Part shown: positions 17,977-57,983 of the stretch, piece after piece
How the letters are laid out: every line of letters begins with the position of its first letter
How positions within the stretch are numbered: position 1 is the stretch's first letter
IMG/VR virus record: IMGVR_UViG_3300036781_000806
Coordinates: 1 to 64,000 of that record
Length of the DNA stretch: 64,000 bases
Strand: one strand, 5' to 3'
DNA from: a virus
The notes under the pieces: model-generated
Seen by the model: only the letters and a program-made list of their open reading frames with translations
Databases searched by the model: none
What the model was told of the DNA's origin: nothing
Translations under genes and position numbers: made by a program

Positions 17977-18432
17977 TTAGGCGATCTCTTGCAGCTCGAA
18001 CGAAACCGTTGTGAGCGCCATATCGGTCGTTTCGGTCCACGTCATGCTGGAAAATCGAACGACATGTCTACCGATCTCGTTATCCCCAGCCGGGTCGTAG
18101 TTAGAACCAACCGGAGCGTCGTCGGTTTCGTAGGGGTGGTACCACGTAAACGGAATCAGGCCGCCGTAATGACTGTTGAAGAAGTCACGCAGCGATTGGA
18201 GATTCAGTGCCCCTGGTCTGCCGGTGTCGGCATAGCTCGTGACGCGGGCCGACAACTTCCAAGTGCGGATCGACTCTGGCGCGTTCACGCCATCTTGGAT
18301 CAGATGCCGCTCGATGGTGTTGTCGTGATACTGCTGGGTCAGCACCGGAAAGATACGGGTTTCCTCGAAGCTCGTATAGAGCATCTGGGGGAGCACGCCA
18401 ACGGGGACTGCCGCCGCTAGATTTCTCGGCAT
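17977..18432 (-). CDS. Minor tail protein (gpM-like position), module 1
   Basis: A 151-residue protein between tape measure and hub, the lambda M/distal tail position. It begins MPRNLAAAVPVGVLPQML and contains FTWYHPYETD and GRHVVRFSSMTW. It aligns along its length with 57525-57983 of module 2 (shared VLPQMLYT, LIQDGVNAPESIR, WYHP). Probably the tail-tip ring that contacts the tape measure. The gap to the tape measure gene is only 3 nt. Confidence 0.78.
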   Translation of the reverse strand: MPRNLAAAVPVGVLPQMLYTSFEETRIFPVLTQQYHDNTIERHLIQDGVNAPESIRTWKLSARVTSYADTGRPGALNLQSLRDFFNSHYGGLIPFTWYHPYETDDAPVGSNYDPAGDNEIGRHVVRFSSMTWTETTDMALTTVSFELQEIA

Positions 18433-18435
18433 CGG

Positions 18436-21400
18436 CTACACCAACAGCAACGGCTGATTCAGCGTTGCGGAGTTCTGGACGCGCCCAATCGAATACTGAT
18501 TGGCTTGGCTGGTTTGCTGCTGCACGAAGTCAGGCGTCACCACTTGACCGGCCATGAAAGCGCCCGCCCCTTGGCCGTCGATGTGAAGGCTGATGCTGGT
18601 AGGGGTTGGTAACTGCGTGCTGGGCTGGCCTCCGTATGTCGGCAAGTTGGAAGCGTAGGTGTACGCTTGGCCGAACATGTAAGAGGCTTGCTGTTGAAGC
18701 TGTCCGCCCGACTCCACCAATCCGCCCGCATGAGGCATAGTCGAGCTAAGTGGCACTTTCTGCCCGGTGCCCGATGCGTAGACCATCAAACCGTTCCGGA
18801 TCTCAGGGTCTATCACGGCCAACGAGACTTTGCCGCCGTATTTCTGTTGCGCGACCTGGACGACCTTCTGGGCAAACTGAGTGTCAATCGTGACGTTGTA
18901 CCGCTGCTTGACGAGCCGCTTCGCTTCGTTGATGGGCGATTCCACACCGGCCAGTTTTTCGCCGATACCGGCAAGCGTGCCAGCAGCAGCGCCGATAGCA
19001 GCGCCGATTGGTCCACCAAATTTCATGCCGAGTGCCGCACCGCCGAGGCCAGATTCAAAGATCCCCAGACCGGTGCCACGGCTGTTGCCAAGCAGACCAG
19101 CTTCAGCCAGTGATGAACCACCCGCCACTAAAGCAGTGCCCGCGAGTCCATCGACGCCGGTGATGCGGCCACTGCCGGAAACCTTCGCGCCACCGACGCC
19201 TGTGAAATCACCAGCGTGCGTGAACCCACCCCAGTTCAGGCCTTTGAAGTTTGAGAGGTTGAAGCCCTTGCCGCCGAGACCCCTGAGGATTCCACCGAAG
19301 GCACCAGAACTCGGTAGGGACATACCTGAGGGGATACCGGCTGATTCAGTCGCGAAACCGCCGCCGCTGCCACCCGTAGGTTCTACGGCTGATGGGAAGA
19401 ACCCGCCACCACCCGATGCTGGATGGAATGGACTGGAGATCCAGCCACCGCCACCAGAAGACGAGACACCGGGAGTGGTCCCGGTACCCACGACTTGGAC
19501 GAACAGCGGCTTGCTAGCCACAGAGCCGTCATTCTTACCGAACACCACAGGCTGCAAGAAGCTCGCAGTCACGCTGGCCAAGCCTGATTCGATCGGCTTC
19601 AAAGCCGCGTCGCGGACGGTCGTGGTCAACTGCTTATTGAAGGCTTTCGGATTCGTGAAGAGCGTGTGATACAGGCCCTCGGCGGTCTTCTTGATTTCGT
19701 CAAGCTGGCGCTTCTGTTCGTTGGCAAACTCGACGGCTTGCTGGTTTTCAAGCTCGTACACTTCCTTGGCGTTTTTGAGCTTCAAGTCCTTGATGGTGTT
19801 TTCGAGCTGGCCATCGTTGAGGTGCTTCTCTCGCGCCAACTGTAGGTCGTAAGCCAGTTCTTCGTTAGCGAACTTCTTCTTGATTTCGAGTTGCTCTAGG
19901 GAGTTCCGGAGCCGCGCTTGCGGCGTGTCCGCGCCGATGCCTGCCAGCTTGGATTGGTCGAGTTCTTGGGTCTGGCGCAATGACATCTCGGCGCGATCCG
20001 CCGCGATGCTGGCTGTCCTAATCCCCTCGGCCACTTTAAGAAGCTCCCTTACCCGCTCCTCATTAATCTTGAGGCCGCTTTTGATGTTCGAAGCGTTGGG
20101 ATCTTCTTCGCCCTTGCCATGATTGAAGGCGAGCTTGTCGAACTCTTCCTGATACTTCTTCTGCTTCGCCGCAACTTCCTGCTGCAACGCGGCGGGTGCT
20201 GCCCCCAGCAGAGCCGTAAGGTTGTCACCCTTGGCCTTGGCGAGTTCATCAAACAGGCGTGTGCTCTCGGGCAACTGGCTGTCTTTCTTGTTAAGACCGG
20301 TCTGGACGCTGCCGATCAGTTCCAGGATGCGCTTGTGCTCAGTTTCGGCTTCTGTCAGCGCCTTGATCTGATGTTCAAGGTCCTGGATGCCCTTGAGGTC
20401 ACGGGCGAACTCGGCGCGATCCGCGATGGCGACGATGCCGTTCTTCTTGAGGGCGTCGGCGTCCTCTCGCAGATCCTTGAGCTTCTCCTTGAGCTTGTCG
20501 ATGGGATCGAGATAGCGTTGCTCGATGGAAGCGGTGCCTTGGCGGAGGCCAGCTTGAACCGCAAGTTGCGCGTCCGCATCGGCAGCGAAGTTCGGTGGCT
20601 TGGGTCGTTGGTTCAACTGGGCAAGCCCCTCCACGGAATCCATCATGCTGTTGAAGTCCAGGAAGCCGGAAGCCACCGGCCCACCCAGTGCAACTGCTGC
20701 CCCCTTCGCACCATTGGCTAGAAAGGACTTCAGCCAATCTGGTGCCTTGGCAGTGATGTTGATAAGCCCTTCGATGGGAGTAGCGATCTGCCGTTTGAGA
20801 GCTTCCCACTCTAGCCCGACCTGCTTGAGATGCGTAGCTGCTTCTTCGGCTTGGTGGAGCGGGTCCTCTAGACCAAAGCCCATCGCTTCCACGGCATGCT
20901 TTAGATCGCCATACTTCTCAACGAGCACCTGAACGTCTTTTGCACCTTTCTTGCCGAGGATTTCGTTGGCAAGGGCAATCTGTTCGGTCTTGTTGGGAAT
21001 TTGGCTGAGCTTCTCCAGAGTCTCCTCGATCAACTGCCCGCCTTCTTTCTGTTCACCCGAAAGATCAACCGTAGAGATCTTCAAGCGAGCAAGTGCAGAT
21101 TCCATGGTGCGGGCCTTCTGCCCGCCCTGATCGAGAGACACGGCCATCGTTGCGCCAGCGCGGGCGAGTCCGTCGATCTCGACTCCGACCAACTTGCCCA
21201 TAGCCTGGAGCTTGTCGAGGTGACCAACAGAGATGCCTGTCTGGGCCGACAAGATCTTGAGATGCTCTGCGTCTTCCGCGAAGCCTTTGGCGATACTGAA
21301 TAGGGCGGTGCCCAAGGCAGTAGCGGCGATGACGGTTCCGGCAAACACGCTGCCCACCGGTCCGATCTTTTCGAGCAAGCCTGTGATCGCGCCCTGTGCC

Positions 21401-21822
21401 GCCTCGACCGGCGACTGCACGAACTGCTCGATGCCCCGACCAAAACTCTTGAGACCGTTTTCGTCCCCACCCTTCTCGGCAGCGATGAGCTTCTGATAGG
21501 CCGCAGTCACGCGGTTAACGGCTTGCTCGTCCTGCTGATATTTCTTGATGAGCCGGTCTCGGTCTGCGATGAGCTTATCGACGCCGGATCGACCAGCAAG
21601 TTCTGCTTGGCGTTCGAGTGACTTTAGAAACCGCTCCTGGGACTGGGTGGCCTTGTCGCTGAACTTGATGAGGTCATTCGAGACCTTGGCAAAAGCGGCG
21701 CTCAGCTTCTCGTTGTGGCCAGTCAGCTTGCTTTCGGAGTTGGCAATCCCATCGTTCAGGGTCTGCAACGCTTTGAGCGTTGACCGGGTATCGATTTCAT
21801 AAACCGCTGTCTCAAGTCCCAT
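18436..21822 (-). CDS. Tape measure protein, module 1
   Basis: Sets tail length and is ejected with DNA. The frame is open to 21855 (1139 aa), but the ATG at 21822 (1128 aa, MGLETAVYEIDTRST) matches the module 2 start and lies just after the TAAATA box. Features are an N-terminal coiled coil, hydrophobic helices near 170-210, a long Lys/Glu/Gln-rich middle, a Gly/Pro-rich segment and a conserved C-terminal domain (QKYGGKVSLAVIDPEIRNG). N- and C-terminal parts are very close to module 2; the middle is diverged and shorter. Confidence 0.88.
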   Translation of the reverse strand: MGLETAVYEIDTRSTLKALQTLNDGIANSESKLTGHNEKLSAAFAKVSNDLIKFSDKATQSQERFLKSLERQAELAGRSGVDKLIADRDRLIKKYQQDEQAVNRVTAAYQKLIAAEKGGDENGLKSFGRGIEQFVQSPVEAAQGAITGLLEKIGPVGSVFAGTVIAATALGTALFSIAKGFAEDAEHLKILSAQTGISVGHLDKLQAMGKLVGVEIDGLARAGATMAVSLDQGGQKARTMESALARLKISTVDLSGEQKEGGQLIEETLEKLSQIPNKTEQIALANEILGKKGAKDVQVLVEKYGDLKHAVEAMGFGLEDPLHQAEEAATHLKQVGLEWEALKRQIATPIEGLINITAKAPDWLKSFLANGAKGAAVALGGPVASGFLDFNSMMDSVEGLAQLNQRPKPPNFAADADAQLAVQAGLRQGTASIEQRYLDPIDKLKEKLKDLREDADALKKNGIVAIADRAEFARDLKGIQDLEHQIKALTEAETEHKRILELIGSVQTGLNKKDSQLPESTRLFDELAKAKGDNLTALLGAAPAALQQEVAAKQKKYQEEFDKLAFNHGKGEEDPNASNIKSGLKINEERVRELLKVAEGIRTASIAADRAEMSLRQTQELDQSKLAGIGADTPQARLRNSLEQLEIKKKFANEELAYDLQLAREKHLNDGQLENTIKDLKLKNAKEVYELENQQAVEFANEQKRQLDEIKKTAEGLYHTLFTNPKAFNKQLTTTVRDAALKPIESGLASVTASFLQPVVFGKNDGSVASKPLFVQVVGTGTTPGVSSSGGGGWISSPFHPASGGGGFFPSAVEPTGGSGGGFATESAGIPSGMSLPSSGAFGGILRGLGGKGFNLSNFKGLNWGGFTHAGDFTGVGGAKVSGSGRITGVDGLAGTALVAGGSSLAEAGLLGNSRGTGLGIFESGLGGAALGMKFGGPIGAAIGAAAGTLAGIGEKLAGVESPINEAKRLVKQRYNVTIDTQFAQKVVQVAQQKYGGKVSLAVIDPEIRNGLMVYASGTGQKVPLSSTMPHAGGLVESGGQLQQQASYMFGQAYTYASNLPTYGGQPSTQLPTPTSISLHIDGQGAGAFMAGQVVTPDFVQQQTSQANQYSIGRVQNSATLNQPLLLV

Positions 21823-21829
21823 GCCCAGG

Positions 21830-21835
21830 TATTTA
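21830..21835 (-). promoter_or_regulatory. TAAATA box before tape measure, module 1
   Basis: Minus-strand CCCATAAATACCTGGGCATG: the box ends 7 nt before the preferred ATG at 21822. No Shine-Dalgarno sequence. Counterpart of 53625-53630. Confidence 0.5.
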
Positions 21836-21895
21836 TGGGGTGGGATTGTGGCCAAACGTTCACCCGTGCTGGACTGGAATTTTGGGAGGATTCAC

Positions 21896-22231
21896 ATGAA
21901 GTGTTGGCATTGCAATGAAATTATGGCTGACGGAATGCAGTTCTGCTCGGGTTGCGGATCGAACAGAAAATCAACCTTGAGGCACCGGCGAACACGGACG
22001 CTTGCCTTGGTCATTGGAATCGGTGGCCCAGTCCTGTTTATGGTGGTGGTGTTCTTCATTGCCGCGTTCACGCCACCTGTACCGCTAACCCCACAGCAAA
22101 AGGCGGAGAAGGAGCAGAAGCTAAAGCTGATGCGGGAGTGGTGCACCGAAGAGTACGGCTTGATCGGCCCGGAGACTTGCGTGAAGCGCTGGTATGAATC
22201 GCAGCGCCAGCTCGAAGAACAGCTTCGCTAG
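21896..22231 (+). CDS. Zinc-ribbon membrane protein (moron), 111 aa
   Basis: Antisense to module 1, between the tape measure and the gp10-like gene. The ATG at 21896 has GGGAGG 6 nt upstream and is preferred over the open frame to 21821. It has an N-terminal zinc ribbon with two C-x2-C pairs (CWHC, CSGC), one membrane helix (about 39-61) and a charged cytoplasmic-looking C-terminus with two Cys. Module 2 carries an unrelated HEPN-like gene in the same slot. Confidence 0.72.
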   Translation: MKCWHCNEIMADGMQFCSGCGSNRKSTLRHRRTRTLALVIGIGGPVLFMVVVFFIAAFTPPVPLTPQQKAEKEQKLKLMREWCTEEYGLIGPETCVKRWYESQRQLEEQLR

Positions 22232-22680
22232 GCCACTTTGCGGAACTGAATTACATTTCCGGTCCGGAACACCGCCGCAACCGCCTGATTCAGCGCCACG
22301 GCGTCCTTAGGCGAGATCCCGAACATGCGATCGATTTGGTTATTGTAGTGTGCCTTCTGGTCTCCCATCGCATCGACAAACCCGATGATTCCCCGGTTCT
22401 GGTTCACCGACAACACCTGGAGTGATCGCAGCGTGCGCCCCGTCCAGGTCCAATCCCTCAGAGGTTGGAGGCCCCGCGCAGTTTTCGACTCAGGATACCC
22501 TCGTTTGTAAGTGCCGTCTTTCCTCATCCGACCCGGTTTCAGCGGCTTTGCTCGTTGGTCGTTGGCATCGATGCCCGAGGCGATCCTGGAGCGCATGCTG
22601 TCGGCAAGGGCTTTGCCGATGCCCGCCATCTGATCTGAACTGAACGGGGACAACGTGAATCGGGCGCGAGTTACCTTCAC
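22228..22680 (-). CDS. HK97 gp10-like/lambda Z-like minor tail protein, module 1
   Basis: A 150-residue protein with a GTG start, located between the G/GT chaperones and the tape measure. It begins with VTRARFTLSPFSSDQMAG and contains the block TWTGRTLRSLQVLSVNQNRG, which is identical in module 2 (52439-52876). Size and place suit a tail-head joining or tail completion protein. The GTG follows a TAAATA box by 5 nt and there is no clear Shine-Dalgarno sequence. Confidence 0.75.
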   Translation of the reverse strand: MKVTRARFTLSPFSSDQMAGIGKALADSMRSRIASGIDANDQRAKPLKPGRMRKDGTYKRGYPESKTARGLQPLRDWTWTGRTLRSLQVLSVNQNRGIIGFVDAMGDQKAHYNNQIDRMFGISPKDAVALNQAVAAVFRTGNVIQFRKVA

Positions 22681-22684
22681 GCCT

Positions 22685-23146
22685 TTATTTACCGAGCGGC
22701 TTCACTCTGGCCCAGTCAATCGGCTTCTGCTTCGTGGCTTCGATCCGTTCGCCCTGGTGCTTCTGCTGCTCCTGCTTCAACACATCCAAAGCCTGAGCCA
22801 TAACCGCCGACACATCTCCCCAGTCCACTTTGAAACTCTCGGTTGCCCGCTGCAAAATGATTGCGGCCTGTAGCAGCTTGCCCGCGTCGGAGTTCATTAG
22901 CTCTTGCGTTCGCTTGACCGGGCAGTCATCGCACTGAATGACGGTTGTGTCCGGGGAGCTACAGACCGGGCAGTCCTGATTGCGTGCCTTGGTAGTTGCG
23001 CCGCAGTCATCACACATCATCAGCGGATCCTGGAGGCGGAACGGACACTGGACAGGCCCGCCAGGGCAAAGCTCATCGGTACGCAGAAGCCTGTTGATTA
23101 GGAAGCGGAGAGTCGGCGGGTCCGGATAATCAGCAGGCTCTAGGCG
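22685..23146 (-). CDS. gpT-like -1 frameshift extension with zinc ribbon, module 1
   Basis: This frame has no good start of its own near its beginning. It is open from the slippery heptamer at 23152-23146 and gives about 153 residues fused to the G protein (337 aa in total). After PADYPDPPTLRFLINR it carries three C-x2-C pairs (CDDC, CPVC, CDDC) and a helical C-terminus. An internal ATG at 23020 could give the zinc-ribbon part alone. By analogy with lambda G/GT the fusion chaperones the tape measure and recruits tail tube subunits. The same arrangement exists in module 2. Confidence 0.75.
   Translation of the reverse strand, partial: RLEPADYPDPPTLRFLINRLLRTDELCPGGPVQCPFRLQDPLMMCDDCGATTKARNQDCPVCSSPDTTVIQCDDCPVKRTQELMNSDAGKLLQAAIILQRATESFKVDWGDVSAVMAQALDVLKQEQQKHQGERIEATKQKPIDWARVKPLGK
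22686..22691 (-). promoter_or_regulatory. TAAATA box before gp10-like gene, module 1
   Basis: Minus-strand GGTAAATAAAGGCGTG: the box overlaps the T-frame stop and ends 5 nt before the GTG at 22680. Counterpart of 52428-52433. Confidence 0.4.
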
Positions 23147-23697
23147 TTTGGGTCAACATTGACGTACGGGTCGATGGCGCTATGGACTTCATTAATCGCA
23201 CCCAGAGCCAGCGACTTGTGCAGGAGTGGGACGTCACAGCATTCCGCGTATCCTTCCCGACGCAGGAACAGGGCATCGAACAACTGCTGATTGGTCTTGA
23301 GGATGCTGGCTTCTTTGAAGGTAGGAAAGCGAAGAGTGAGGCCGACATTGCAGAGCGGCGTCTTGATCGAGACCACTAGCTCGTCGTTGACCGTCTCGGC
23401 TGACGTGACGGCAGCAGAGATGACCCAGCCAATGATGTGCTCGGCTTCGTATTCGTCGAACTCGTCGCCGTCTGGATCGAGCCGGATCGAGTTGAAGAGA
23501 TCAAGGTAAGGGATCTTATCTTCGCTGTCCGGATTCTTCCGCTTGAGCTTTGCAAACTTATCGGTCGTAGCCGCAAGCTCCTTGTCGGTCGGACGCCGGA
23601 TAACAGCAACCTTAGAAGGGTGCGGTACTTTGACCTTCAAGCCCTGCACCGTCTCTCCTGAATCGAGCTTGATGGTGTTTAATTCGCCGTAGAGCAT
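23140..23697 (-). CDS. Tail assembly chaperone G-like protein, module 1
   Basis: A 185-residue protein beginning MLYGELNTIKLDSGE, upstream of the tape measure in the lambda G position. It ends VDPNA and is closely similar to 51410-51961 (shared PTDKEL, YLDLFN, DEYEAEHIIGW). Most ribosomes would end at TAG 23142-23140; a minority slip at CCCAAAC into the zinc-ribbon frame. Expected to bind the tape measure before tail assembly. About 300 nt upstream are noncoding and include the structured repeat at 23874-23952. Confidence 0.83.
   Translation of the reverse strand: MLYGELNTIKLDSGETVQGLKVKVPHPSKVAVIRRPTDKELAATTDKFAKLKRKNPDSEDKIPYLDLFNSIRLDPDGDEFDEYEAEHIIGWVISAAVTSAETVNDELVVSIKTPLCNVGLTLRFPTFKEASILKTNQQLFDALFLRREGYAECCDVPLLHKSLALGAINEVHSAIDPYVNVDPNA
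23146..23152 (-). promoter_or_regulatory. -1 frameshift slippery heptamer, module 1
   Basis: Minus-strand C CCA AAC fits X_XXY_YYZ in the G frame (GAC CCA AAC GCC TAG). A -1 shift reads CGC CTA GAG onward into the open T frame. It is the same heptamer, at the same distance from the stop, as in module 2. Confidence 0.8.
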
Positions 23698-23873
23698 TTC
23701 GTATTCCTTAGCAACCGCAAAGCGCAGTCACTTTTATGTAGGGAGGCGGCGGAGAGAAGCGGTGCGTTGAACCAGTTTCAACGTTGTACTTTGCGCTACT
23801 ACACCCACCCCCATGCCTAAATGGTGGTTTCAAAGGTATTTGCGTTCGGTCACCGCAATGCACAAGGGGTATA

Positions 23874-23952
23874 CGCGGGGAGCGCGAACGGAAGCAATAA
23901 GGAAGCCGATCAGCGCGGCTACTTTGTAAACTCCAGGGCCGTCCCCCGCGCA
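23874..23952 (-). ncRNA. Structured repeat element, copy 1 (candidate RNA)
   Basis: Read on the minus strand, about 79 nt closely match 61047-61127 (plus strand), sharing ACGGCCCTGGAGTTTACAA and TTATTGCTTCCGTTCGCG. The ends pair (CGCGGGG with CCCCGCG), ACGG pairs with CCGT, and an inner stem holds AAG/CTT and GCCG/CGGC. The inner stem and closing stem differ between copies in ways that largely keep pairing. It lies in the 5' leader of the module 1 G gene. It could be a structured RNA, a MITE/REP-like mobile repeat, or a recombination site. Confidence 0.5.
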
Positions 23953-23996
23953 CTCAGTCTAACCCAACAAAGTGAAGTCTGCTACCGCTGTATATT

Positions 23997-24200
23997 ATGA
24001 ACATGGAGGAAGTATTCCCTGAACCATGTGAGGAGGGAAGCCAGCTCCGGGAACGTTACAGCCACGCTGTTTCCGTGTGGCTTACCGTGGGTGGCGCTGA
24101 TTCCTGCCGGATGCATTTCCCTATGGCTATAGAGGCTAAGGAGCGCCTAGACCACGCAGCAGAAAGGCTGATCCAGCACCGCAAGCAGCACGGTTGTTGA
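23997..24200 (+). CDS. Small protein of the HGC-ending type (67 aa)
   Basis: Plus strand, antisense to module 1, between the G gene and a virion gene. It contains LRERYSHAVSVWL and ends AERLIQHRKQHGC. The minus-strand gene at 60475-60684 ends ALHQHQKEHGC, so the two share a C-terminal H-x3-HGC signature that I associate with small acidobacterial proteins. This suggests host-type cargo rather than a phage gene. Role unknown. Confidence 0.55.
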   Translation: MNMEEVFPEPCEEGSQLRERYSHAVSVWLTVGGADSCRMHFPMAIEAKERLDHAAERLIQHRKQHGC

Positions 24201-24202
24201 AG

Positions 24203-24604
24203 TTAGACGTTCAGGATTGAATCGATAAAGATGTTGGCTGCCGAAACGCCTGCGTTAGTGATGTACAGGCTGGTCACATCGGCGGAGAACGGGCACTTTC
24301 CGATTAGATCGGTTGCGAGCGTCCAAACCATCACTTGACCCGCCGCGACTGCGATTGTGTCTGTCGGGCTGCTACCTGACGCAGCATTGGTGTAGATCGT
24401 GATGGCCTGATCGCTGGTGATGCTCAGGCTCTGCAAGTCGGCTTGAACCCACCCGATCACAACGTGATGGTTAGTGGTCGAGGCCGCAACCTGTACAGCG
24501 AGGTTACGCTCCGTGTTGCCGGTGACGGTTTCGGTGAGAGACCGCGCGGTCGAGCCTTGGTTCTTGTAAGTGCGGATGACGGTGTGGTTAATCGTGGTTG
24601 CCAT
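24203..24604 (-). CDS. Virion structural protein (133 aa), module 1
   Basis: Beta-rich Thr/Ala/Ser-rich protein that is very close to 50885-51286 (shared INHTV, RTYKNQGSTAR, SITSDQAITIYTNAASGSS). It is placed between the tail tube and the G chaperone in both modules, so it may decorate the tail tube or form part of the neck. No known family was recognised. Confidence 0.72.
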   Translation of the reverse strand: MATTINHTVIRTYKNQGSTARSLTETVTGNTERNLAVQVAASTTNHHVVIGWVQADLQSLSITSDQAITIYTNAASGSSPTDTIAVAAGQVMVWTLATDLIGKCPFSADVTSLYITNAGVSAANIFIDSILNV

Positions 24605-24860
24605 TGCTGTTGCTCCGTTCCAATGCTCTAACTCGTTCCTTCACGTCTGAGATTTCCTCTCTCATCTCGTACCGGTGTTCCTTGAAGTCCTGCGCCAAGT
24701 CGTCAACGGCATTGCGGAGCGTTCTCGTGTCGCCGTTGGTGGTCTGGGTCTTCATGACCTTCAAGAGCTTCACCAGCAACGCCACGATAAAGCTAGCAAC
24801 GCCTGTTCCGATAGCGACCGAGACGCCGATCAACGACTGAACTTGCGATAGATCGACCAT
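24588..24860 (-). CDS. Membrane plus coiled-coil protein (90 aa), module 1 only
   Basis: One membrane segment (about 10-33, VSVAIGTGVASFIVALLVKLL), then a hydrophilic coiled coil rich in Glu/Arg. It overlaps the start of 24203-24604 by 17 nt and lies 4 nt downstream of the tail tube gene. There is no counterpart in module 2, where these neighbours are 12 nt apart. Size and topology would suit a holin-type or membrane-anchored accessory protein; there is no direct proof. Confidence 0.65.
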   Translation of the reverse strand: MVDLSQVQSLIGVSVAIGTGVASFIVALLVKLLKVMKTQTTNGDTRTLRNAVDDLAQDFKEHRYEMREEISDVKERVRALERSNSNGNHD

Positions 24861-24863
24861 GTC

Positions 24864-25844: not shown

Positions 25845-25930
25845 GTTGAGTGCCTGTACACGTGTGGCGATAAGGTTACCTCTGAGGGGTGCGCTAAGCT
25901 GTGCTTGCGACAGACCCGTCTTCGAGGAAC

Positions 25931-25936
25931 TATTTA
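25931..25936 (-). promoter_or_regulatory. TAAATA box before tail tube, module 1
   Basis: Minus-strand CCGCTAAATAGTTCC, 59 nt before the ancestral start position at 25871. Counterpart of 49817-49822. Confidence 0.4.
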
Positions 25937-25940
25937 GCGG

Positions 25941-26411
25941 TCAGTTGTCGCCGATCTCTGGAAATACGAAGTCGATCTTGAAGAAGTCCGTTCGGGTCTC
26001 GTCCGTGAGGCGCGTGATGGTGGGCGTGTCCATGATCTGTAGATCCGGGAGCACGCTGACTTGGCGGATGTTCAAAGCCGTGCCGTTCACTGGGCCATTC
26101 ACGACGAGCCAGACCAAATCTTCGTAACCGAGAGGATTCTGGACGGTCGCTTGGTTTGGGGCTTTCAGGTAGACGGTGACATGGTGCTTCCACATCGTCA
26201 TACCGTCGAAGTTGCCGCCCAGCGTACCTTCATAGACGACGAGACAGCTTGGGGCTGTCATCTGGTAAATGTCCTCGAAGACGGGCACGACTTGGCCGTT
26301 CACGAAGGTGTGGGCGCGGATGTTCTGCGTGCCATTCATAGCGGTCACGAAATCTTCAATGGTTTGCAGTGTCGAGATGGTGGCGTTGACGATGAGCGAG
26401 GGTTTCAACAT
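25941..26411 (-). CDS. Tail terminator/completion protein, module 1
   Basis: 156 residues, close to 48814-49287 (shared LKPSL, SCLVVYEGTLGGNFDGMT, YLKAPNQATVQ). It is positioned directly before the tail tube gene, the usual place of the lambda U-type tail terminator. It ends in FVFPEIGD. The start abuts the end of 26412-26723. Confidence 0.75.
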   Translation of the reverse strand: MLKPSLIVNATISTLQTIEDFVTAMNGTQNIRAHTFVNGQVVPVFEDIYQMTAPSCLVVYEGTLGGNFDGMTMWKHHVTVYLKAPNQATVQNPLGYEDLVWLVVNGPVNGTALNIRQVSVLPDLQIMDTPTITRLTDETRTDFFKIDFVFPEIGDN

Positions 26412-26723: not shown

Positions 26724-26740
26724 GTGGACCGCATGGCCGG

Positions 26741-49806: not shown

Positions 49807-49816
49807 CACCCATAGC

Positions 49817-49822
49817 TAAATA
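49817..49822 (+). promoter_or_regulatory. TAAATA box before tail tube, module 2
   Basis: ATAGCTAAATAAGGTTTC, 40 nt before the ATG at 49863, which has its own AGAGGA ribosome binding site. Counterpart of 25931-25936. Confidence 0.4.
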
Positions 49823-49862
49823 AGGTTTCGGGGCTACTGGCCCAGAGAGGACAACACATCTT

Positions 49863-50873: not shown

Positions 50874-50884
50874 CGAGGTCACAA

Positions 50885-51286
50885 ATGGCAACCACCATCA
50901 ATCACACAGTCGTCCGCACCTACAAGAATCAAGGCTCCACTGCCCGCACGCTTTCCGAGACAGTGAGCGGCAACACGGAGCGCAACCTAGCGGTGCAGGT
51001 CGCAGGCACCACCACCAACCATCACGTTGTAATCACTTGGGTACAGGCCGACATTCAGAGCCTCAGCATCACCAGCGACCAAGCCATCACGATCTATACG
51101 AACGCGGCCTCGGGTAGCAGCCCACAGGACACGATTGCGATTGCAGCCGGTCAGGTGTTGATCTGGACGCTGGCAACCGACTTAGTCGCACGTTGCCCAT
51201 TCAGCGACGACGTGACCAGCATCTACATCACCAATTCCGGTTCGACCGCTGCCAACATCTTTATTGACAGCGTGCTCTCGATCTAA
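50885..51286 (+). CDS. Virion structural protein (133 aa), module 2
   Basis: Same length as 24203-24604 and nearly colinear in sequence (TTINHTVVRTYKNQGSTAR, QSLSITSDQAITIYTNAASG). It follows the tail tube gene by 12 nt and is itself followed by an intrinsic terminator. Tail tube decoration or neck role proposed. Confidence 0.72.
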   Translation: MATTINHTVVRTYKNQGSTARTLSETVSGNTERNLAVQVAGTTTNHHVVITWVQADIQSLSITSDQAITIYTNAASGSSPQDTIAIAAGQVLIWTLATDLVARCPFSDDVTSIYITNSGSTAANIFIDSVLSI

Positions 51287-51289
51287 ATA
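51284..51289 (+). promoter_or_regulatory. TAAATA box at end of 50885-51286
   Basis: ATCTAAATACTCAC; contains the stop codon. A transcript from here would meet the terminator at 51310-51343, so as a promoter it would be attenuated. It is 120 nt upstream of the G gene start. Confidence 0.3.
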
Positions 51290-51309
51290 CTCACAACTCC
51301 TTAGACTGC

Positions 51310-51343
51310 GGGCCACATCGCCGACCAGCGTGTGGCCCTTTTT
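51310..51343 (+). terminator. Intrinsic terminator before G gene, module 2
   Basis: GGGCCACA (51310-51317) pairs perfectly with TGTGGCCC (51331-51338), then TTTTT. It splits late module 2 between the tail tube group and the G/GT-tape measure group, so the latter needs its own promoter or antitermination. Confidence 0.85.
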
Positions 51344-51409
51344 CATATCCAGCTACATAGTTCACGAACGAGCAGTTCTGCTCGTCAGCAAGGAGCATCC
51401 AACCATCAC

Positions 51410-51961
51410 ATGTTGTACGGCGAATTGAATACAATCACGCTTTCTGACGGCTCAGCCATTCAAGGTCTCAAGGTTCAGATTCCGCATCCCCGGAAGACCG
51501 CCGTTATCCGGCGTCCGACCGATAAGGAGCTAGACGCCACAAAGGAGAAATTCCGTAAGCTGCTCAAAAAGGACCCGGCCAGCACCGACAAGATGCCGTA
51601 CCTGGATCTGTTCAACGGTATCCGGCTGGATCAAGACGGGGAGGACTTCGACGAGTATGAAGCCGAGCACATCATCGGGTGGGCCATTCAAGCGACGGCG
51701 GATTCAGAAACAATAGGTGAGGAACTGGCCGTTACGATCACGACGCCCACCTGCACGGTTCGCCATTTCCTACGCTTCCCAACCTTCAAAGAAATGCAGA
51801 CCAAGACGGGCGCGGCGTTGTTCGATGCCCTGTTCCTGCGTCAGGAAGGCTACGCGACGGGCTGCGAGATCCCAGCACAGCATCGGGAGCTTGCGATGCG
51901 CGAAGTCATCAAGAATCATCTGTCGATTGACCCGTTCGTCTCGACGGACCCAAACGCCTAA
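51410..51961 (+). CDS. Tail assembly chaperone G-like protein, module 2
   Basis: 183 residues from the ATG at 51410 (MLYGELNTITLSDGS), matching the module 1 start; the open frame to 51332 includes the terminator region and is rejected. Ends STDPNA with TAA at 51959-51961. Shares PTDKELDATKEKF and DEYEAEHIIGWAI with module 1. Binds the tape measure by analogy with lambda gpG. Confidence 0.83.
   Translation: MLYGELNTITLSDGSAIQGLKVQIPHPRKTAVIRRPTDKELDATKEKFRKLLKKDPASTDKMPYLDLFNGIRLDQDGEDFDEYEAEHIIGWAIQATADSETIGEELAVTITTPTCTVRHFLRFPTFKEMQTKTGAALFDALFLRQEGYATGCEIPAQHRELAMREVIKNHLSIDPFVSTDPNA
51949..51955 (+). promoter_or_regulatory. -1 frameshift slippery heptamer, module 2
   Basis: C CCA AAC in the G frame (GAC CCA AAC GCC TAA); a -1 slip reads CGC CTA AAG into the open T frame. 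A 5-bp hairpin CCGGA-AGATTA-TCCGG starts 8 nt downstream, the spacing expected of a stimulatory element. Confidence 0.82.
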
Positions 51962-52434
51962 AGCCGGAAGATTATCCGGACCCGCCAACCTTGCGGTTCC
52001 TCATCAACCGGCAACTCCGACGCGACTCCCTGTGCGCGGGCGGTCCAGACGGCGCGGTGCGCTGCCCTGTCAGGATGCAAGATCCGCTCATGATCTGCGA
52101 CGATTGCGGAGCACGACACCGACGGTACAACCAGGACTGCCCATCATGCGGATCGCCCGACACCACCACCGTGCAATGTGACGACTGCCCGGTGAAACGC
52201 CTAGACGAACTTATGCGCTCTGACGCGGGTGCGTTGCTGCCACAGGTGTATGAACTCAACCGAGCAGCCGAAACATTCAACATCGACTGGGGCGACGTGT
52301 CGGCCACGATGGGCAAAGGGTTGGACATCCTCAAGCAGGAACTCAACAAGCTGCACTCCGAACACATGGAGTCGGCCAAGCAGAAACCGGCCAGCATCGA
52401 CTGGGCTAAGGTGAAGCGCTCAAACGGTAAATAA
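51955..52434 (+). CDS. gpT-like -1 frameshift extension with zinc ribbon, module 2
   Basis: About 159 residues joined to G by the frameshift (341 aa in total). EDYPDPPTLRFLINRQL is followed by three C-x2-C pairs (CDDC, CPSC, CDDC) and a helical C-terminus rich in Lys/Glu. Only a TTG at 51991 could start it independently near the beginning, with no ribosome binding site. The zinc ribbon in a GT-type chaperone is conserved in both modules. Confidence 0.76.
   Translation, partial: RLKPEDYPDPPTLRFLINRQLRRDSLCAGGPDGAVRCPVRMQDPLMICDDCGARHRRYNQDCPSCGSPDTTTVQCDDCPVKRLDELMRSDAGALLPQVYELNRAAETFNIDWGDVSATMGKGLDILKQELNKLHSEHMESAKQKPASIDWAKVKRSNGK
52428..52433 (+). promoter_or_regulatory. TAAATA box before gp10-like gene, module 2
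   Basis: CGGTAAATAACGGTG: overlaps the T-frame stop and ends 5 nt before the GTG at 52439. Counterpart of 22686-22691. Confidence 0.4.
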
Positions 52435-52438
52435 CGGT

Positions 52439-52876
52439 GTGAAAATAACCAGAGCGCGTTTCACCCTGAGTCCGTTTTCCTCCGAGCAAATGGCTGGCAT
52501 CGGCAAGGTGCTCGCCAAATCGATCCGGGATCGCATCGGATCGGGCCTCAACGCCCTCGACCAATCAGCCAAGCCTCTGAGACCAGGACGGCGCGGCAAG
52601 AAGGGCTACCCAGAGTACAAACAAGCCCATGGGATCGCGCCCGTTCGCAACTGGACCTGGACCGGGCGCACGTTGCGGAGCCTGCAGGTGCTCTCCGTCA
52701 ATCAGAACCGTGGAACGATCGGCTTCGTAGACGCGATGGGCGACCAGAAGGCGCACTATAACAATCTGATTGAAAAGGCGTTCGCAGTCAGCCCCAAAGA
52801 TGCGGTGGCGCTGCGCCAAGCCGTTTACGACACGTTCCGATCAGAAAAGCCAATTCAATTCCGGCGCGTAGCCTGA
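52439..52876 (+). CDS. HK97 gp10-like/lambda Z-like minor tail protein, module 2
   Basis: 145 residues, GTG start as in module 1. TWTGRTLRSLQVLSVNQNRG and FVDAMGDQKAHYNN are identical blocks with 22228-22680. Tail completion or joining role inferred from position and family. Confidence 0.76.
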   Translation: MKITRARFTLSPFSSEQMAGIGKVLAKSIRDRIGSGLNALDQSAKPLRPGRRGKKGYPEYKQAHGIAPVRNWTWTGRTLRSLQVLSVNQNRGTIGFVDAMGDQKAHYNNLIEKAFAVSPKDAVALRQAVYDTFRSEKPIQFRRVA

Positions 52877-52916
52877 TGCTTCCGGAAGTGTTGGCGAATG
52901 ATAGCATTCAAAGGTA

Positions 52917-53603
52917 ATGTCTATAAGCGTCTCATTCGGGAATCCAACCATTCTGATGCGATCTTACTTTTCCTCTCACCACCTGTGGGCGGCGCGGTAC
53001 TTCGTCGTCCGAGCAATAGAAGTCGAAGCTCGCCAAAAAGACATTCCTCGATTCGACTTGGAGCAGCGGGCCTTTGTTACGGGTGCGATCCTTTCATCTG
53101 TGGCGTTCCTAGAAGCAGCCATTAACGAGGTGTTAAAGGATGTGGCCGATGGACATGAGAGCTACATTTCTCCTATTGCTCCTACCGCCAGTGCTGAAAT
53201 AAAGGCTTTCTGGGAGTCAGCAGGGAACGGCGCTCGGTTGTCGGGGCCGGTTCTGGATAGGTATCAGGCCGTCCTACGGTTTTGTGGCGAAGCGGAATTC
53301 TCCAAAGGGCAAGCGCCCTATCAGGACGCGGATTCAGTGACAAAGCTCCGTAATGAATTAATACACTACATGCCCGAAACTCTCGGGGGCGAGAATCAAC
53401 ATAAGCTCGGGCAACGGCTCTCAAAAAGTTTCCCAACGAACCCTCTGTTAGTTGGTTCGGGGAATCCCTACTTCCCTGACCACTGCCTAGGCAGTCCTTG
53501 CGCGGACTGGGCCGTCAATTCTGTGCGGGCCTTTGCTGACAGCTTCTTCAACAAGATTGGCGTTTCCCCCAACTACATGCGTGTCAACTTTCCTGCGGTC
53601 TAG
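52917..53603 (+). CDS. HEPN-like protein (moron), 228 aa
   Basis: A mostly helical protein inserted between gp10-like and tape measure genes, the same slot used by 21896-22231 in module 1. LRNELIHYMPE (about 141-151) contains the R-x4-H signature of HEPN ribonucleases, and AFLEAAINEVLKD upstream is a typical HEPN helix. AAAGGT precedes the ATG. HEPN proteins often serve as toxins or defence effectors; here that is inferred from the motif alone. Confidence 0.68.
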   Translation: MSISVSFGNPTILMRSYFSSHHLWAARYFVVRAIEVEARQKDIPRFDLEQRAFVTGAILSSVAFLEAAINEVLKDVADGHESYISPIAPTASAEIKAFWESAGNGARLSGPVLDRYQAVLRFCGEAEFSKGQAPYQDADSVTKLRNELIHYMPETLGGENQHKLGQRLSKSFPTNPLLVGSGNPYFPDHCLGSPCADWAVNSVRAFADSFFNKIGVSPNYMRVNFPAV

Positions 53604-53624
53604 TCGCACCAAGCACCTTTCCCA

Positions 53625-53630
53625 TAAATA
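53625..53630 (+). promoter_or_regulatory. TAAATA box before tape measure, module 2
   Basis: CCCATAAATACTCCTATGGG: ends 5 nt before the ATG at 53636, with no Shine-Dalgarno sequence. CATAAATAC is shared with the module 1 tape measure (21830) and hub (17020) boxes. Confidence 0.5.
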
Positions 53631-53635
53631 CTCCT

Positions 53636-56600
53636 ATGGGTTTGGAAACGGTTGTCTATGAAATCGACACACGGTCAACGCTAAAAGCGTTACAAACCAT
53701 CAATGATGCGGTCACGCAGGGCGAAGGCAAGCTCAGCGAGCATAACCAAAAGCTCAGCGATGCGTTTTCCAAAGTTTCCAACGACCTAGTAAAGTTCTCC
53801 GACAAAGCAACCCAATCACAGGAGCGGTTTCTAAAATCGCTAGAGCGGCAGGCTGACTTAGCGGGCAAGTCGGGCGTCGATAAGCTGATTGCAGATCGTG
53901 ACCGGCTCATCCGGAAATACCAGGACGATGAAAAAGCGGTGGATCGCGTCACCGCTGCCTACAAGAAGCTGATCGCCGCCGAACAGGGCGGAGGCCAGAA
54001 CAATCTCCAGAAGTTTGGCCAGAGCATCACCCAGTTCATTCAAAACCCGCTACAAGCGGCTGGTGGTCAGGCCACCACGTTCCTGGAAGGCATCGGACCC
54101 GTAGCGGCTGGCATCGCCTCCGTCGCGACGGCTGCTGTCGCTCTTGGCGTCGCTCTTTATAAGGATGTGGAAGCGTTCGGCGAAGCATCGGAACGGCTTA
54201 TCAATCTGTCTGCCTCAACCGGCATCGCGGTCGGAGACCTGGACAAGCTGCAGGCGATGGCGAAGTTGACCGGCACCGACATTTCCTCGATCACTCGCGC
54301 CGCGACCACCATGGACGAGGCCCTGGAAGAAGGCGGCGAGAAGGGCAAGAAGCTCGCCGACAATCTGGCTAAGCTCCATGTCTCCACGATTGATTTCAAT
54401 GGTGCGCAGAAGCAGGGCGGCGAGATCCTAGGTGAAGTGTTCCACCGGCTGGCGCAAGTTTCAGACCAAACGGAACGGATCGGCCTAGCAGCCGAAATCA
54501 TGGGACCGAAGGTCTCCCGTAACTTCCTGCCCATCATCCAGAACCTGGATGCTCTCAACCAGAAAGCAGAAGAGCTTGGTTTCGGGATGCGCGACGGCCT
54601 GATTAAAGAGGGAGCCGAGGCCGCTGAAACGCTGCATGAAATGAGCTTACGCTTTGACATTCTCGAAGGCAAGATAGCCGGGTTTGTGATTGGCGCGGTC
54701 AAATGGCTGGCACCGTTTAAGGACAGCATCCTAGAGGCGTTTAGTCCGTTGCTCGAAGCGCTCAGCCTGTTGGACCGCTACAACGCAGCGGTTCGAGACG
54801 CCGAGTCAAAGAAGTACGACCTGTCAGGCGGTAGCAAGACCCTCGATGTTTTCAAACAGAAGAACATCGCATCTGCGCAAGCCTTCAATTCCGCGCAGGG
54901 CTTGAATCAGGAAGACGCCATCAAGCAGAAGATCAAGGACCTGGAAGAGCAGAAGCAAAAGGCCCAACTCATCATCGACACCGCCGCACGTGGCCAGCTT
55001 GCAGACCGGCCATCGCTTGTTAAAGCCGAGCACGATGTTACCAAGTCGAATCAGCAGATCGAAGCCAACAAGAAGCTGTTGGAGCAGATCAGCCAGCGCA
55101 AAGAGTTTTTGAAACAGTTGCACGAGCAGGAGCTTGGCGCTGGCGATTCTGAACTCTCCGCGTACGACCGCATCATCGCCAAGCGTGACGAGCAGATCCA
55201 GAAGGCGAAAGAACTCGGTTTCGTGGGTTCGCAGCTTGCCCAAGTCACCGCGACAGAAAACAAGAATGCCATTCGTGACATCGACCTGTTGAATCAGCGG
55301 CTGGACGCTCAGCAGGCTAAGGAGCTAAAAGCAATCGCGGTAACTGAGGCCCGCGCCAACTTGCACCAGCAGCAGGCACGCCAGCTACAGATTCCCATTC
55401 GTGATCTTGGTCAAAAAGGCGTCACGGCATCAGACATAGAGGCCGACATTGCAGCGGCCACGCAGCAAAAGCTGTTATTTGCTCAGCAGGAGCACGACCA
55501 AGAGATTTCGCTCGCCAATGAATTGAAGCTGTCGAACGGCCAAACAGACGAGCGAGCAAAACAGCTAGCCATCGCGCACGCCGACTCGCAGTTGCGTCAG
55601 GAAGCGGGCCAGATCGAGACGGATCGAGAGAAGCATCTCAGCGATCTGCGCCAGAAGCAGATAGACCAGCACCGAGCCTTCCAGGAAGAGCTATCCAAGA
55701 TCACGTCGGGCGGAGCCGCCGACGATGTGAAGTCGCGCTCTGGCCTACTCTCAAAGCTCTCAACGCTCAACCGGAAAGACGACCGGCAAGGCGTCATCGA
55801 AGACGAACTCAAAATCAAGATTGACGAAGCCAACCAGCTTGCCAAGATTGAGCTTGACCGGATCAGCCGAGAGGAGGACGGCTATCAGGCCAGCCTCAGC
55901 GCCGAAAAAGCATTGCGGCAACTCAAAAAGGAAACGGACGACGCCCACTCTGAGGCGATCTTGCAACAGGCAGAGCTTCAGCACCAGCAGTTTGAACAGG
56001 TGAAGTCCGAAGCTGAGAAGCTCTACAACACGCTCTTTACTAAGCCCAAGGATTTCGGGAAGGATTTAGCCAGCACGCTGCATTCAGCGTTTTTGAAGCC
56101 AGTCACGGAAGGCTTCGCAGGCGTCACGTCGCGTGCGCTCCAGCCGTTGATTTACGGTCGGGATGGAAAGTCAGGAATCGCGGGCGCGTTCGGTAACTTG
56201 TTCGGCGGAGCCGACAAGCCTGACAAGCTCACGCTGTCCAACGACCAGAACACCAGGGCCACGGATCAGAACACCGCTACTCTGTACGGACTCACCACCA
56301 TTATGTCTCGTGGGTTGGGTCTTCCGGCTCCTCCCGCACCATCCGGCCTCGCAGGAGCCTCAGTATCCCTGTCGGTATCCGGGAGTGGCTCCGGAGGTTC
56401 TTCTGGGCCTCTCTCGATACTCGGACGGCTGGCCGGGATCGGCTCAGCGCCCATCGTGATCCCGCCGTCCTCGAACGGTAACTTCGGTGGTGGGTCATCG
56501 GGTGTGGCGGCGATCTCCAGCGGCATCAGCTTTCCAGAGCTAGGCACGGGTGAAGACCTCGGCACCAGCATCACCACGCCTTCCGCGCCGATGTTCGGCT

Positions 56601-57523
56601 CCGAGAGTCTCGGTCTGCCTCCGGGTCTCAGGATTCCCAGCGGCACGGGCGGCTTTGGCAGCGTTCTAAACGGCCTCGGCGGGAAAGGTGGGTTCAACCT
56701 CTCCAGCTTGAAAGGCATCAACTGGGGTTCATTCTCACACGCGGGTGATTTCACGGGCGCGGGCGGTGCCAAGGTCTCAGGTGGTGGCCGCATAACGGGC
56801 GTTAACGGTCTTGCAGGAGCGGCGTTGTTCGCGGGTGGATCGCAGTTAGCCGAGGCTGGCTTGCTAGGTAACGCACGCGGAACTGGCCTAGGCATTTTGG
56901 AGGCGGGTGCCGGTGGTGCTGCACTCGGCATGAAATTTGGTGGTCCTCTCGGCGCGGCTATCGGCGCTGCTGCTGGTGTGTTGGCTGGCGTTGGTGAAAA
57001 GCTGGCGGGTGTTGAATCGCCGGTCAACGAAGCCAAGCGCCTTGTGAAGCAAAAATACAGCGTCACGATTGACACGCAGTTTGCGCAGAAGATCGTGCAG
57101 ACTGCACAACAGAAGTACGGCGGCAAAGTCTCGCTGGCCGTCATGGATCCGGAAATCCGGAACGCTCTCATGGTCTACGCTTCGGGCACCGGCCAGAAAG
57201 TGCCGTTGTCGAGCACGATGCCGCACGCAGGCAACTTGGCGATGTCTGGAGGCCAGCTCCAGCAGGAAGCCTCCTACATGTTCGGGCAGGCGTACACATA
57301 TCAATCGAATCTGCCCAGCTACGGCAACGTCAGCAGCACCACGCTACCCAACACGAGTCCTGCCATCAGCCTGCACATTGATGGTCAAGCTGCTGGTGCA
57401 TTCATGGCCGGTCAGGTAGTGACGCCCGATTTCGTGCAGCAGCAAGCCAGCCAAGCTGCAAACTACTCGAATGGACGAGTCCAGAACTCAGCAACCTTGA
57501 ACCAGCCGTTGCTCTACGTCTAA
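53636..57523 (+). CDS. Tape measure protein, module 2
   Basis: 1295 residues. The N-terminal coiled coil (MGLETVVYEIDTRSTLKALQT) and the C-terminal domain (QKYGGKVSLAVMDPEIRNA, MFGQAYTYQSNLPSYG) are nearly the same as in module 1, while the central Gln/Lys/Glu-rich coil is longer and diverged. A hydrophobic stretch near 155-180. At about 0.15 nm per residue the tail would be about 190 nm, against about 170 nm for module 1. Confidence 0.88.
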   Translation: MGLETVVYEIDTRSTLKALQTINDAVTQGEGKLSEHNQKLSDAFSKVSNDLVKFSDKATQSQERFLKSLERQADLAGKSGVDKLIADRDRLIRKYQDDEKAVDRVTAAYKKLIAAEQGGGQNNLQKFGQSITQFIQNPLQAAGGQATTFLEGIGPVAAGIASVATAAVALGVALYKDVEAFGEASERLINLSASTGIAVGDLDKLQAMAKLTGTDISSITRAATTMDEALEEGGEKGKKLADNLAKLHVSTIDFNGAQKQGGEILGEVFHRLAQVSDQTERIGLAAEIMGPKVSRNFLPIIQNLDALNQKAEELGFGMRDGLIKEGAEAAETLHEMSLRFDILEGKIAGFVIGAVKWLAPFKDSILEAFSPLLEALSLLDRYNAAVRDAESKKYDLSGGSKTLDVFKQKNIASAQAFNSAQGLNQEDAIKQKIKDLEEQKQKAQLIIDTAARGQLADRPSLVKAEHDVTKSNQQIEANKKLLEQISQRKEFLKQLHEQELGAGDSELSAYDRIIAKRDEQIQKAKELGFVGSQLAQVTATENKNAIRDIDLLNQRLDAQQAKELKAIAVTEARANLHQQQARQLQIPIRDLGQKGVTASDIEADIAAATQQKLLFAQQEHDQEISLANELKLSNGQTDERAKQLAIAHADSQLRQEAGQIETDREKHLSDLRQKQIDQHRAFQEELSKITSGGAADDVKSRSGLLSKLSTLNRKDDRQGVIEDELKIKIDEANQLAKIELDRISREEDGYQASLSAEKALRQLKKETDDAHSEAILQQAELQHQQFEQVKSEAEKLYNTLFTKPKDFGKDLASTLHSAFLKPVTEGFAGVTSRALQPLIYGRDGKSGIAGAFGNLFGGADKPDKLTLSNDQNTRATDQNTATLYGLTTIMSRGLGLPAPPAPSGLAGASVSLSVSGSGSGGSSGPLSILGRLAGIGSAPIVIPPSSNGNFGGGSSGVAAISSGISFPELGTGEDLGTSITTPSAPMFGSESLGLPPGLRIPSGTGGFGSVLNGLGGKGGFNLSSLKGINWGSFSHAGDFTGAGGAKVSGGGRITGVNGLAGAALFAGGSQLAEAGLLGNARGTGLGILEAGAGGAALGMKFGGPLGAAIGAAAGVLAGVGEKLAGVESPVNEAKRLVKQKYSVTIDTQFAQKIVQTAQQKYGGKVSLAVMDPEIRNALMVYASGTGQKVPLSSTMPHAGNLAMSGGQLQQEASYMFGQAYTYQSNLPSYGNVSSTTLPNTSPAISLHIDGQAAGAFMAGQVVTPDFVQQQASQAANYSNGRVQNSATLNQPLLYV

Positions 57524-57524
57524 G

Positions 57525-57983
57525 ATGCCGATGAACCTTGTAACAGCGAGTCCGCAGGGCGTTTTGCCCCAGATGCTCTACACAGCATTTGAGGAATCGC
57601 GCGTCTTCCCGATGTTGAGCCAGCAGTACCACGACAAAACCGTGGAGCGCTCGTTGATCCAGGATGGTGTGAACGCGCCCGAGTCGATCCGATCCTGGAA
57701 ACTATCGGTGCGCCTGACGAGCTACCAGGATCTCGACGGACCGGGAGCGCTACAGCTTGCCACGCTCCGAGACTTTTACGCCGCCCATCTCGGAGGCTTG
57801 GTTCCGTTTTACTGGTACCACCCGTTTGAACAGTCGGATGGAACGCCGGTTGGCTCCAACTACGACCCAACCGGCGACTCGGAGCCGGGACGTCACGTCG
57901 TGAAGTTTCGGAACCAAAGCTGGCAGGAGACGACCGACATGTCGATGACCAATGTGTCGTTTGAGCTGCTGGAAATCGCCTAG
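57525..57983 (+). CDS. Minor tail protein (gpM-like position), module 2
   Basis: 152 residues, begins MPMNLVTASPQGVLPQMLYT. Last recognisable gene of module 2. It shares LIQDGVNAPESIRSWKLS, FYWYHPFEQ and ETTDMSMTNVSFEL with 17977-18432. The hub gene that follows in module 1 is missing here; noncoding AT-rich DNA follows at once. Confidence 0.78.
   Translation: MPMNLVTASPQGVLPQMLYTAFEESRVFPMLSQQYHDKTVERSLIQDGVNAPESIRSWKLSVRLTSYQDLDGPGALQLATLRDFYAAHLGGLVPFYWYHPFEQSDGTPVGSNYDPTGDSEPGRHVVKFRNQSWQETTDMSMTNVSFELLEIA

What the first reader, a model, noticed from the sequence alone, without database searches (positions are those of the whole stretch)
17977..57983. Two complete, diverged lambda-like late modules back to back in one element
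Module 1 (minus, 34348 to 7399) and module 2 (plus, 39508 to 57983) repeat the same order: small and large terminase, gpW, portal, S49 protease/scaffold, decoration, capsid, neck genes, tail tube, G/GT, gp10-like, tape measure, minor tail protein. All frames appear intact, and small signals (frameshift site, nested scaffold, TAAATA boxes) are kept in both. Two functional structural gene sets in one element is unusual and could mean two particle types, or two prophages fused by recombination.
Basis: partly seen in the sequence, partly recalled or inferred. Interest (0 to 1): 0.8.

Follow-up and report, generated by a model that had tools for sequence, protein, structure and literature searches.

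The report
Two neighbouring prophages, one missing parts
A bacterial chromosome, probably of a soil acidobacterium, carries the particle-building genes of two distantly related viruses side by side in mirror image; one set looks complete and the other lacks its host-recognition parts, so this is most likely two neighbouring dormant viruses and not one virus with two kinds of shell.

Summary
The duplicated late module is real. Eighteen collinear gene pairs (29-84% amino-acid identity) run head-to-head: module 1 (M1, minus, TerS at 34348) and module 2 (M2, plus, TerS at ~39508). All frames are intact and dN/dS is low. The -1 slippery site, nested scaffold and TAAATA boxes are kept in both. 'Two complete' is wrong: M2 stops at 57983 and lacks the J-like tip protein and all fibres. 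The record holds one J and one integrase, both on M1's side. M2 is not a copy of M1: its nearest relative is a separate one-module provirus (PR, IMGVR_UViG_3300036781_000799; TerL 79%, capsid 85%). M1 branches outside M2+PR. Both record ends fall exactly on stop codons, so it appears to be a provirus stretch trimmed from a longer contig. M1, the middle and M2 share a k-mer signature that PR lacks, and an 80-bp hairpin repeat occurs in both M1 and the right flank, which argues against a between-species assembly chimera. Best reading: two adjacent or nested prophages of one acidobacterial siphophage clade, the second truncated. A single element making two particle types that share one tip is not excluded (~10%). 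Side finding: a T4-type late-promoter system (TAAATA boxes in all three; gp55-like sigma in PR, absent here).

The parts
1..1458 (-). Tyrosine integrase, the only one in the record; its stop codon is the first three bases of the record
   Evidence: Pfam PF00589 and PHROG 1/216; single match in record
3012..3812 (-). T4 gp32-like single-strand DNA-binding protein
   Evidence: PF08804 E 6e-24, phrog_224 E 4.5e-45; absent from PR
7399..12513 (-). Module 1 tail-fibre and tip-accessory genes (7399-8508, 8523-9512, 9544-10074, 10086-11177, 11200-12513)
   Evidence: 57-82% identical to PR 28910-38458; no M2 counterpart
12510..17006 (-). J-like central tail-tip protein of module 1, the only J in the record
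   Evidence: Phage-tail_3; 82% to PR J; single hit
17074..17964 (+). Inserted 296-aa ORF (looks like a membrane protein) between pre-J and J, absent from PR, at the same point where M2 breaks off
17977..34348 (-). Module 1 shared block: TerS 33872-34348, TerL 31897-33879, gpW 31617-31865, portal 30070-31623, protease/nested scaffold 28675-30060, decoration 28304-28669, capsid 27290-28285, neck genes, tail tube 24864-25844, G/GT 23140-23697 with 22685-23020, tape measure 18436-21822, pre-J 17977-18432
   Evidence: blastp pairs and PHROGs
23698..24202 (.). M1-specific insertion: 80-bp hairpin repeat (23874-23952) plus a small opposite-strand ORF starting at 23997
   Evidence: 82-bp, 87.8% match to right flank 61047-61126; ORF read
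34349..39507 (.). Middle region: 337-aa ORF (+, 34482-35495), tail-spike-like 902 aa (-, 35553-38261), 184-aa ORF (-, 38254-38808), two small ORFs (-, 38836-39081 and 39113-39361). No integrase, repressor or replication gene recognised
   Evidence: phrog_2234 tail spike E 1.5e-6; no relative found in IMG/VR or phages
39508..57983 (+). Module 2 shared block: TerS, TerL 40852-42834, gpW 42854-43096, portal 43097-44665, protease/nested scaffold 44675-46102, decoration 46121-46495, capsid 46520-47509, neck, tail tube 49863-50873, G/GT 51332-51961 with 51991-52434, tape measure 53636-57523, pre-J 57525-57983; no J or fibres
   Evidence: blastp and PHROGs; 61-92% to PR for the main genes
39935..40798 (+). 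Accessory gene between M2 TerS and TerL (weak DUF3800); PR has a DUF2971 gene at the same point
57984..61600 (.). Boundary zone: non-coding AT-richer DNA, DUF5343 gene 58507-59229, 59435-59920, small basic protein 59944-60192, hairpin repeat 61047-61126
   Evidence: 59944-60192 is 48% to PR 41124-41405
61839..64000 (+). Host-like flank, running on to 66429 (putative-Ig-domain protein whose stop is the last base of the record); GC 63%

Best explanation
This is a real chromosomal stretch with two neighbouring (tandem or nested) prophage segments from one clade of lambda-like siphophages, lying head-to-head. The left segment (about 1-34.3 kb, or to 39.4 kb with the middle spike cassette) has an integrase, a gp32-like SSB, complete head and tail genes, J and fibres. 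The right segment (about 39.5-58 kb) is the head-and-tail block of a second, PR-like prophage that has lost its integrase and early side, and its J/fibre side. Shown: gene order, divergence, truncation of M2, single J and integrase, conserved signals, shared composition. Inferred: that the modules arrived as two infections rather than as one phage; that M2 alone cannot make infectious particles; that one late sigma acting on the shared TAAATA boxes would switch on both blocks together, so on induction M2 proteins could be made and might form hybrids with, or interfere with, M1 particles.
For: TerL tree: M2+PR sisters (100/100) with M1 outside (96/94), so M2 is not an internal duplicate. PR is a separate provirus with a single module; its TerS-to-pre-J genes are mostly 61-92% to M2, while its J and fibres find their only counterparts on M1's side. 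One J, one integrase, two TerL. No internal stops and dN/dS 0.04-0.38 where measurable. M1, middle and M2 tetranucleotide profiles correlate at 0.79-0.90, but M2-PR late blocks only 0.60-0.73. A hairpin repeat links M1 with the right flank. The record and PR both start and end exactly on stop codons. Prophage-in-prophage and tandem prophages are documented (PMC8112680, PMC9934374).
Against: No att sites or second integrase found between the modules, so two separate integration events are not shown. M2 shows no decay. Capsid relatives come mostly from phages of about 41-69 kb, the closest of them 62-69 kb, so a single ~58-60 kb unit would not be too large to package.
Confidence: 0.72

Rival explanations
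1. One functional ~58-60 kb temperate element with two alternative head-tail modules that share a single receptor-binding tip (J and fibres), making two particle types.
For: Both modules intact and conserved. The same TAAATA boxes and slippery site are kept. Tail genes are the most alike between M1 and M2 (tape-measure C-terminus 81%, tube 84%). PR's J (82% to this J) sits with an M2-like tail. Closest capsid relatives have 62-69 kb genomes.
Against: Only one example; no other record with both modules found. No late sigma found in the record and no repressor or replication initiator recognised. Heads are deeply diverged (45%). PR shows one module.
Confidence: 0.1
2. Assembly chimera: two proviruses from different cells joined by the assembler in the middle region.
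For: A single virus record with no reads to inspect; head-to-head layout; no second example.
Against: Longest exact match between the modules is 26 bp, too short to join contigs there. Shared k-mer signature across the junction. Hairpin repeat on both sides of the junction, absent from PR. The middle region has ordinary, intact ORFs.
Confidence: 0.1
3. Duplication of the late module inside one phage, followed by divergence.
For: Same gene order and signals in both.
Against: M2's sister is PR, not M1, with full support for TerL; capsids are as distant from each other as from other phages'; synonymous sites near saturation.
Confidence: 0.02
4. M2 is a domesticated, J-less particle (gene-transfer-agent-like) kept by the host.
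For: Intact head and tail genes under purifying selection, lacking J and fibres.
Against: Retains TerS and TerL of phage type; no conservation across host genomes shown; the selection measured includes time before the truncation.
Confidence: 0.04

Closest known systems
Prophage-in-prophage and tandem prophages (E. coli STEC/EPEC, PMC8112680; M. abscessus T36, PMC9934374)
   Same: Two related prophages occupying one locus, with segments of shared sequence
   Different: Here they are head-to-head, the second lacks integrase, J and fibres, and the att sites were not found
IMGVR_UViG_3300036781_000799 (PR)
   Same: Same gene order; M2-like TerS to pre-J genes; M1-like J and fibres; TAAATA boxes; CCCAAAC slippery site
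   Different: One late module; its own different integrase, a gp55-like late sigma and endonuclease VII; no gp32-like SSB; different k-mer signature
Bryobacterales-linked proviruses, group (i), PMC11924767
   Same: Proviruses of soil acidobacteria, a plausible host group for this record
   Different: Their two named IMG/VR records did not appear in the searches here; relationship not tested
RDJL / RHph_Y / KPP23 siphophages (62-69 kb)
   Same: Closest isolate capsid proteins (40-47%)
   Different: They were not among the best terminase matches (Wolbachia WO and Bordetella phages were, ~32-33%); one capsid match in each record

Membership tests
Lambda-like (HK97-fold, long-tailed) late module | TerS-TerL-gpW-portal-protease/scaffold-decoration-capsid-neck-tube-G/GT-tape measure order | tested here: met
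Lambda-like (HK97-fold, long-tailed) late module | -1 frameshift joining G and T | tested here: met
   CCCAAAC at the same place in M1, M2 and PR; translation itself not tested
Lambda-like (HK97-fold, long-tailed) late module | J-like tip protein and fibres after the tape-measure genes | tested here: not met
   met for M1 (12510-17006), not met for M2
Tandem or nested prophages | Two prophage gene sets of separate descent at one locus | tested here: met
   TerL tree, PR comparison
Tandem or nested prophages | att sites flanking each prophage | tested here: inconclusive
   no exact direct repeat of 11 bases or more between the first 160 bases and the middle or right zone; record trimmed at the integrase stop
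Tandem or nested prophages | Host DNA at both outer ends | tested here: inconclusive
   host-like genes on the right; left end trimmed
Single phage with two particle types | Both modules complete enough to build a particle | tested here: not met
   M2 lacks J and fibres, unless it borrows M1's
Single phage with two particle types | Both modules excised and packaged together | not testable with these tools
   needs induction and junction mapping
T4-type late transcription | gp55-family sigma plus TAAATA-type late boxes | tested here: inconclusive
   boxes present in both modules and PR; sigma in PR, none in this record

The most novel reading that the evidence does not exclude
One temperate element carries two deeply diverged head-tail modules in mirror image, both under the same late-promoter box and served by one shared tail tip and fibre set, so that a single induction yields two capsid types with the same host range.
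Probability: 0.08. Interest if true: 0.8.

Novelty: new member of a known kind. Interest (0 to 1): 0.36.

Why it matters
If it is two prophages, it is a clean example of related phages stacking in one probably acidobacterial locus, with one keeping an intact head-tail block after losing its tip: raw material for hybrid particles and module exchange. It also warns that provirus callers can report two prophages as one. If it were one element, it would be a phage with two capsids and one receptor-binding apparatus, which I did not find described in the papers searched.

Tried and rejected
Within-element duplication: rejected by the TerL tree and capsid distances. A DNA-capacity argument against a single 60-kb unit, based on PR's 43 kb: dropped, because the closest capsid relatives belong to 62-69 kb phages and PR is itself trimmed. 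att search between the left end and the middle or right zone: nothing beyond one 10-mer. Relatives of the integrase and the 337-aa gene in IMG/VR, and of the spike in IMG/VR and the phage collection: none; J: only PR in IMG/VR and none among phages. The one genome-contig scan with TerL found only a 29% Duganella match, so no host genome was identified. TIGR03437 (Solibacter domain) as a host marker: no hit. Collection searches for the hairpin repeat found nothing.

Full report
WHAT THE RECORD IS. The window is bases 1-64000 of a 66,429-bp linear IMG/VR virus record. I read its last bases as L004. The first three bases are the stop codon of an integrase gene and the last base is the end of the stop codon of a putative-Ig-domain gene. 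The closest relative, PR, also begins at an integrase stop and ends at a gene's stop. I infer that both are provirus stretches cut out of longer contigs at gene boundaries by the prediction pipeline. The last 4.6 kb has GC 63% against about 57% for the late modules and encodes a three-gene set with a putative-Ig-domain protein. From general knowledge this looks like an acidobacterial (Bryobacteraceae-type) chromosome, but no database test confirmed it (the TIGR03437 search was negative).

THE OBSERVATION. Eighteen collinear pairs run from TerS to the gene just before J. Whole-alignment amino-acid identities: TerS 41, TerL 50, gpW 56, portal 60, protease 62, decoration 48, capsid 46, neck 29-78, tail tube 84, tailX 83, G 63, T 63, gp10-like 74, tape measure 53 (the blastp pieces are 37% at the N-terminus and 81% at the C-terminus), pre-J 69. 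No gene of either block has an internal stop, and dN/dS is 0.04-0.38 where dS is not saturated. The -1 slippery heptamer CCCAAAC lies immediately before the G stop in M1, M2 and PR. The protease gene has an internal TAAATA box followed by an in-frame ATG 23-32 nt later in all three, giving nested scaffolds of 163, 180 and 187 aa.

Module 2 is not complete. It stops at the stop codon of the pre-J gene (57983). The following 500 bp has no convincing gene, followed by a DUF5343 gene and then host-like DNA. A J profile finds one J in the record, at 12510-17006 on module 1's side. The fibre genes at 7399-13128 likewise have no second copy. There is one tyrosine integrase.

THE KEY RELATIVE. PR (IMGVR_UViG_3300036781_000799, 43.4 kb) has one module. 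From TerS to pre-J it is closer to M2 in every paired gene (TerL 79%, portal 81%, decoration 89%, capsid 85%, tube 92%). After pre-J, PR continues directly into J (27 bp later) and the fibres, whose counterparts in this record lie on M1's side (J 82%). A small basic-protein gene near PR's right end resembles 59944-60192, just right of M2 (48%). The simplest reading is that M2 is a PR-type prophage that lost J to fibres on one side and its integrase and early genes on the other. In the TerL tree M2 and PR are sisters (100/100) and M1 is outside them (96/94), the three forming one clade with L017. The capsids of M1 and M2 are as distant from each other (45%) as M1 is from a Roseobacter phage (44%) or M2 from a Rhizobium phage (47%); their joint branching is unresolved.

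IS THE JUNCTION REAL? I cannot see reads. Three results argue for it. (a) The tetranucleotide profiles of M1, middle and M2 correlate at 0.79-0.90 with each other, while M2 against the late blocks of PR, its closer protein relative, gives only 0.60-0.73; so M1 and M2 have probably shared a host. (b) An 80-bp hairpin repeat occurs in an M1-specific insertion (23874-23952) and in the right flank (61047-61126), 87.8% over 82 bp, E 4e-19, and not in PR. (c) The longest exact match between modules is 26 bp, so assembler confusion or frequent recombination between them is unlikely. A chimera of two cells of the same species remains possible (about 10%).

MECHANISM. The most likely history is two infections by related phages at one locus, as documented for prophage-in-prophage and tandem prophages (PMC8112680; PMC9934374), followed by loss of both ends of the second. 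In PR the integrase points away from the late genes, while in M1 it points the same way as them. Two prophages with that difference, inserted at one site, would end up with opposite late-gene directions; this is a possible explanation of the head-to-head layout, not a shown one. All late blocks carry TAAATA boxes: 19 of 67 late starts have one within 25 nt upstream against 0.2 expected (binomial p 2e-32), most often 5-7 nt before the start codon. PR encodes a gp55-family late sigma (phrog_234, E 9e-44); from general knowledge, T4 gp55 reads TATAAATA. This record has no such gene, so its late genes may need a sigma from elsewhere; if supplied, both blocks should be switched on together. That is inference.

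SINGLE-ELEMENT READING. It is not excluded. M2 shows no decay. The closest capsid relatives come from phages of 62-69 kb, so a 58-60 kb unit could be packaged. The tail genes are the most alike between modules, so a shared J is imaginable. I give it about 10%.

VERDICT. Real, well conserved, mostly ordinary in kind: neighbouring related prophages, one truncated, reported as one provirus.

Noticed in passing
window late genes of both modules; L005/L013 (PR): TAAATA is hugely enriched just upstream of late genes (19 of 67 starts, mostly 5-7 nt before the start codon), and PR encodes a T4 gp55-like late sigma (L005:2820-3368). This suggests T4-type, possibly leaderless, late transcription in temperate lambda-like phages.
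   Followed up: partly
23874-23952 and 61047-61126: An 80-bp hairpin repeat (87.8% over 82 bp) in an M1-specific insertion and in the right flank; in the insertion it sits next to a small opposite-strand ORF (start 23997) ending ...HRKQHGC, and a similar-looking ORF ending ...HQKEHGC lies at 60475-60774. Possibly a host dispersed repeat.
   Followed up: partly
39935-40798; 49297-49806; 52917-53603; 17074-17964; L005:6780-7559: Each late module carries different accessory genes wedged between structural genes: weak DUF3800, NUMOD4-HNH endonuclease and a 228-aa ORF in M2; a 296-aa ORF in M1; DUF2971 in PR matching a PADLOC candidate defence family (PDC-S31). The TerS-TerL gap and the pre-J/J gap look like insertion spots.
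   Followed up: partly
35553-38261: Spike-like 902-aa protein with what looks like an N-terminal signal peptide and a phage-fibre-like stretch, upstream of TerS and away from the other fibres; no relative found in IMG/VR or phage records.
   Followed up: no
82-145: Three direct repeats of GGGGTGAGCGACTG (at 82, 107 and 128) inside the 3' end of the integrase gene, possibly integrase arm-binding sites.
   Followed up: no
58507-59229: DUF5343 gene at the right boundary with a weak match to a PADLOC candidate defence family (PDC-M34A).
   Followed up: no
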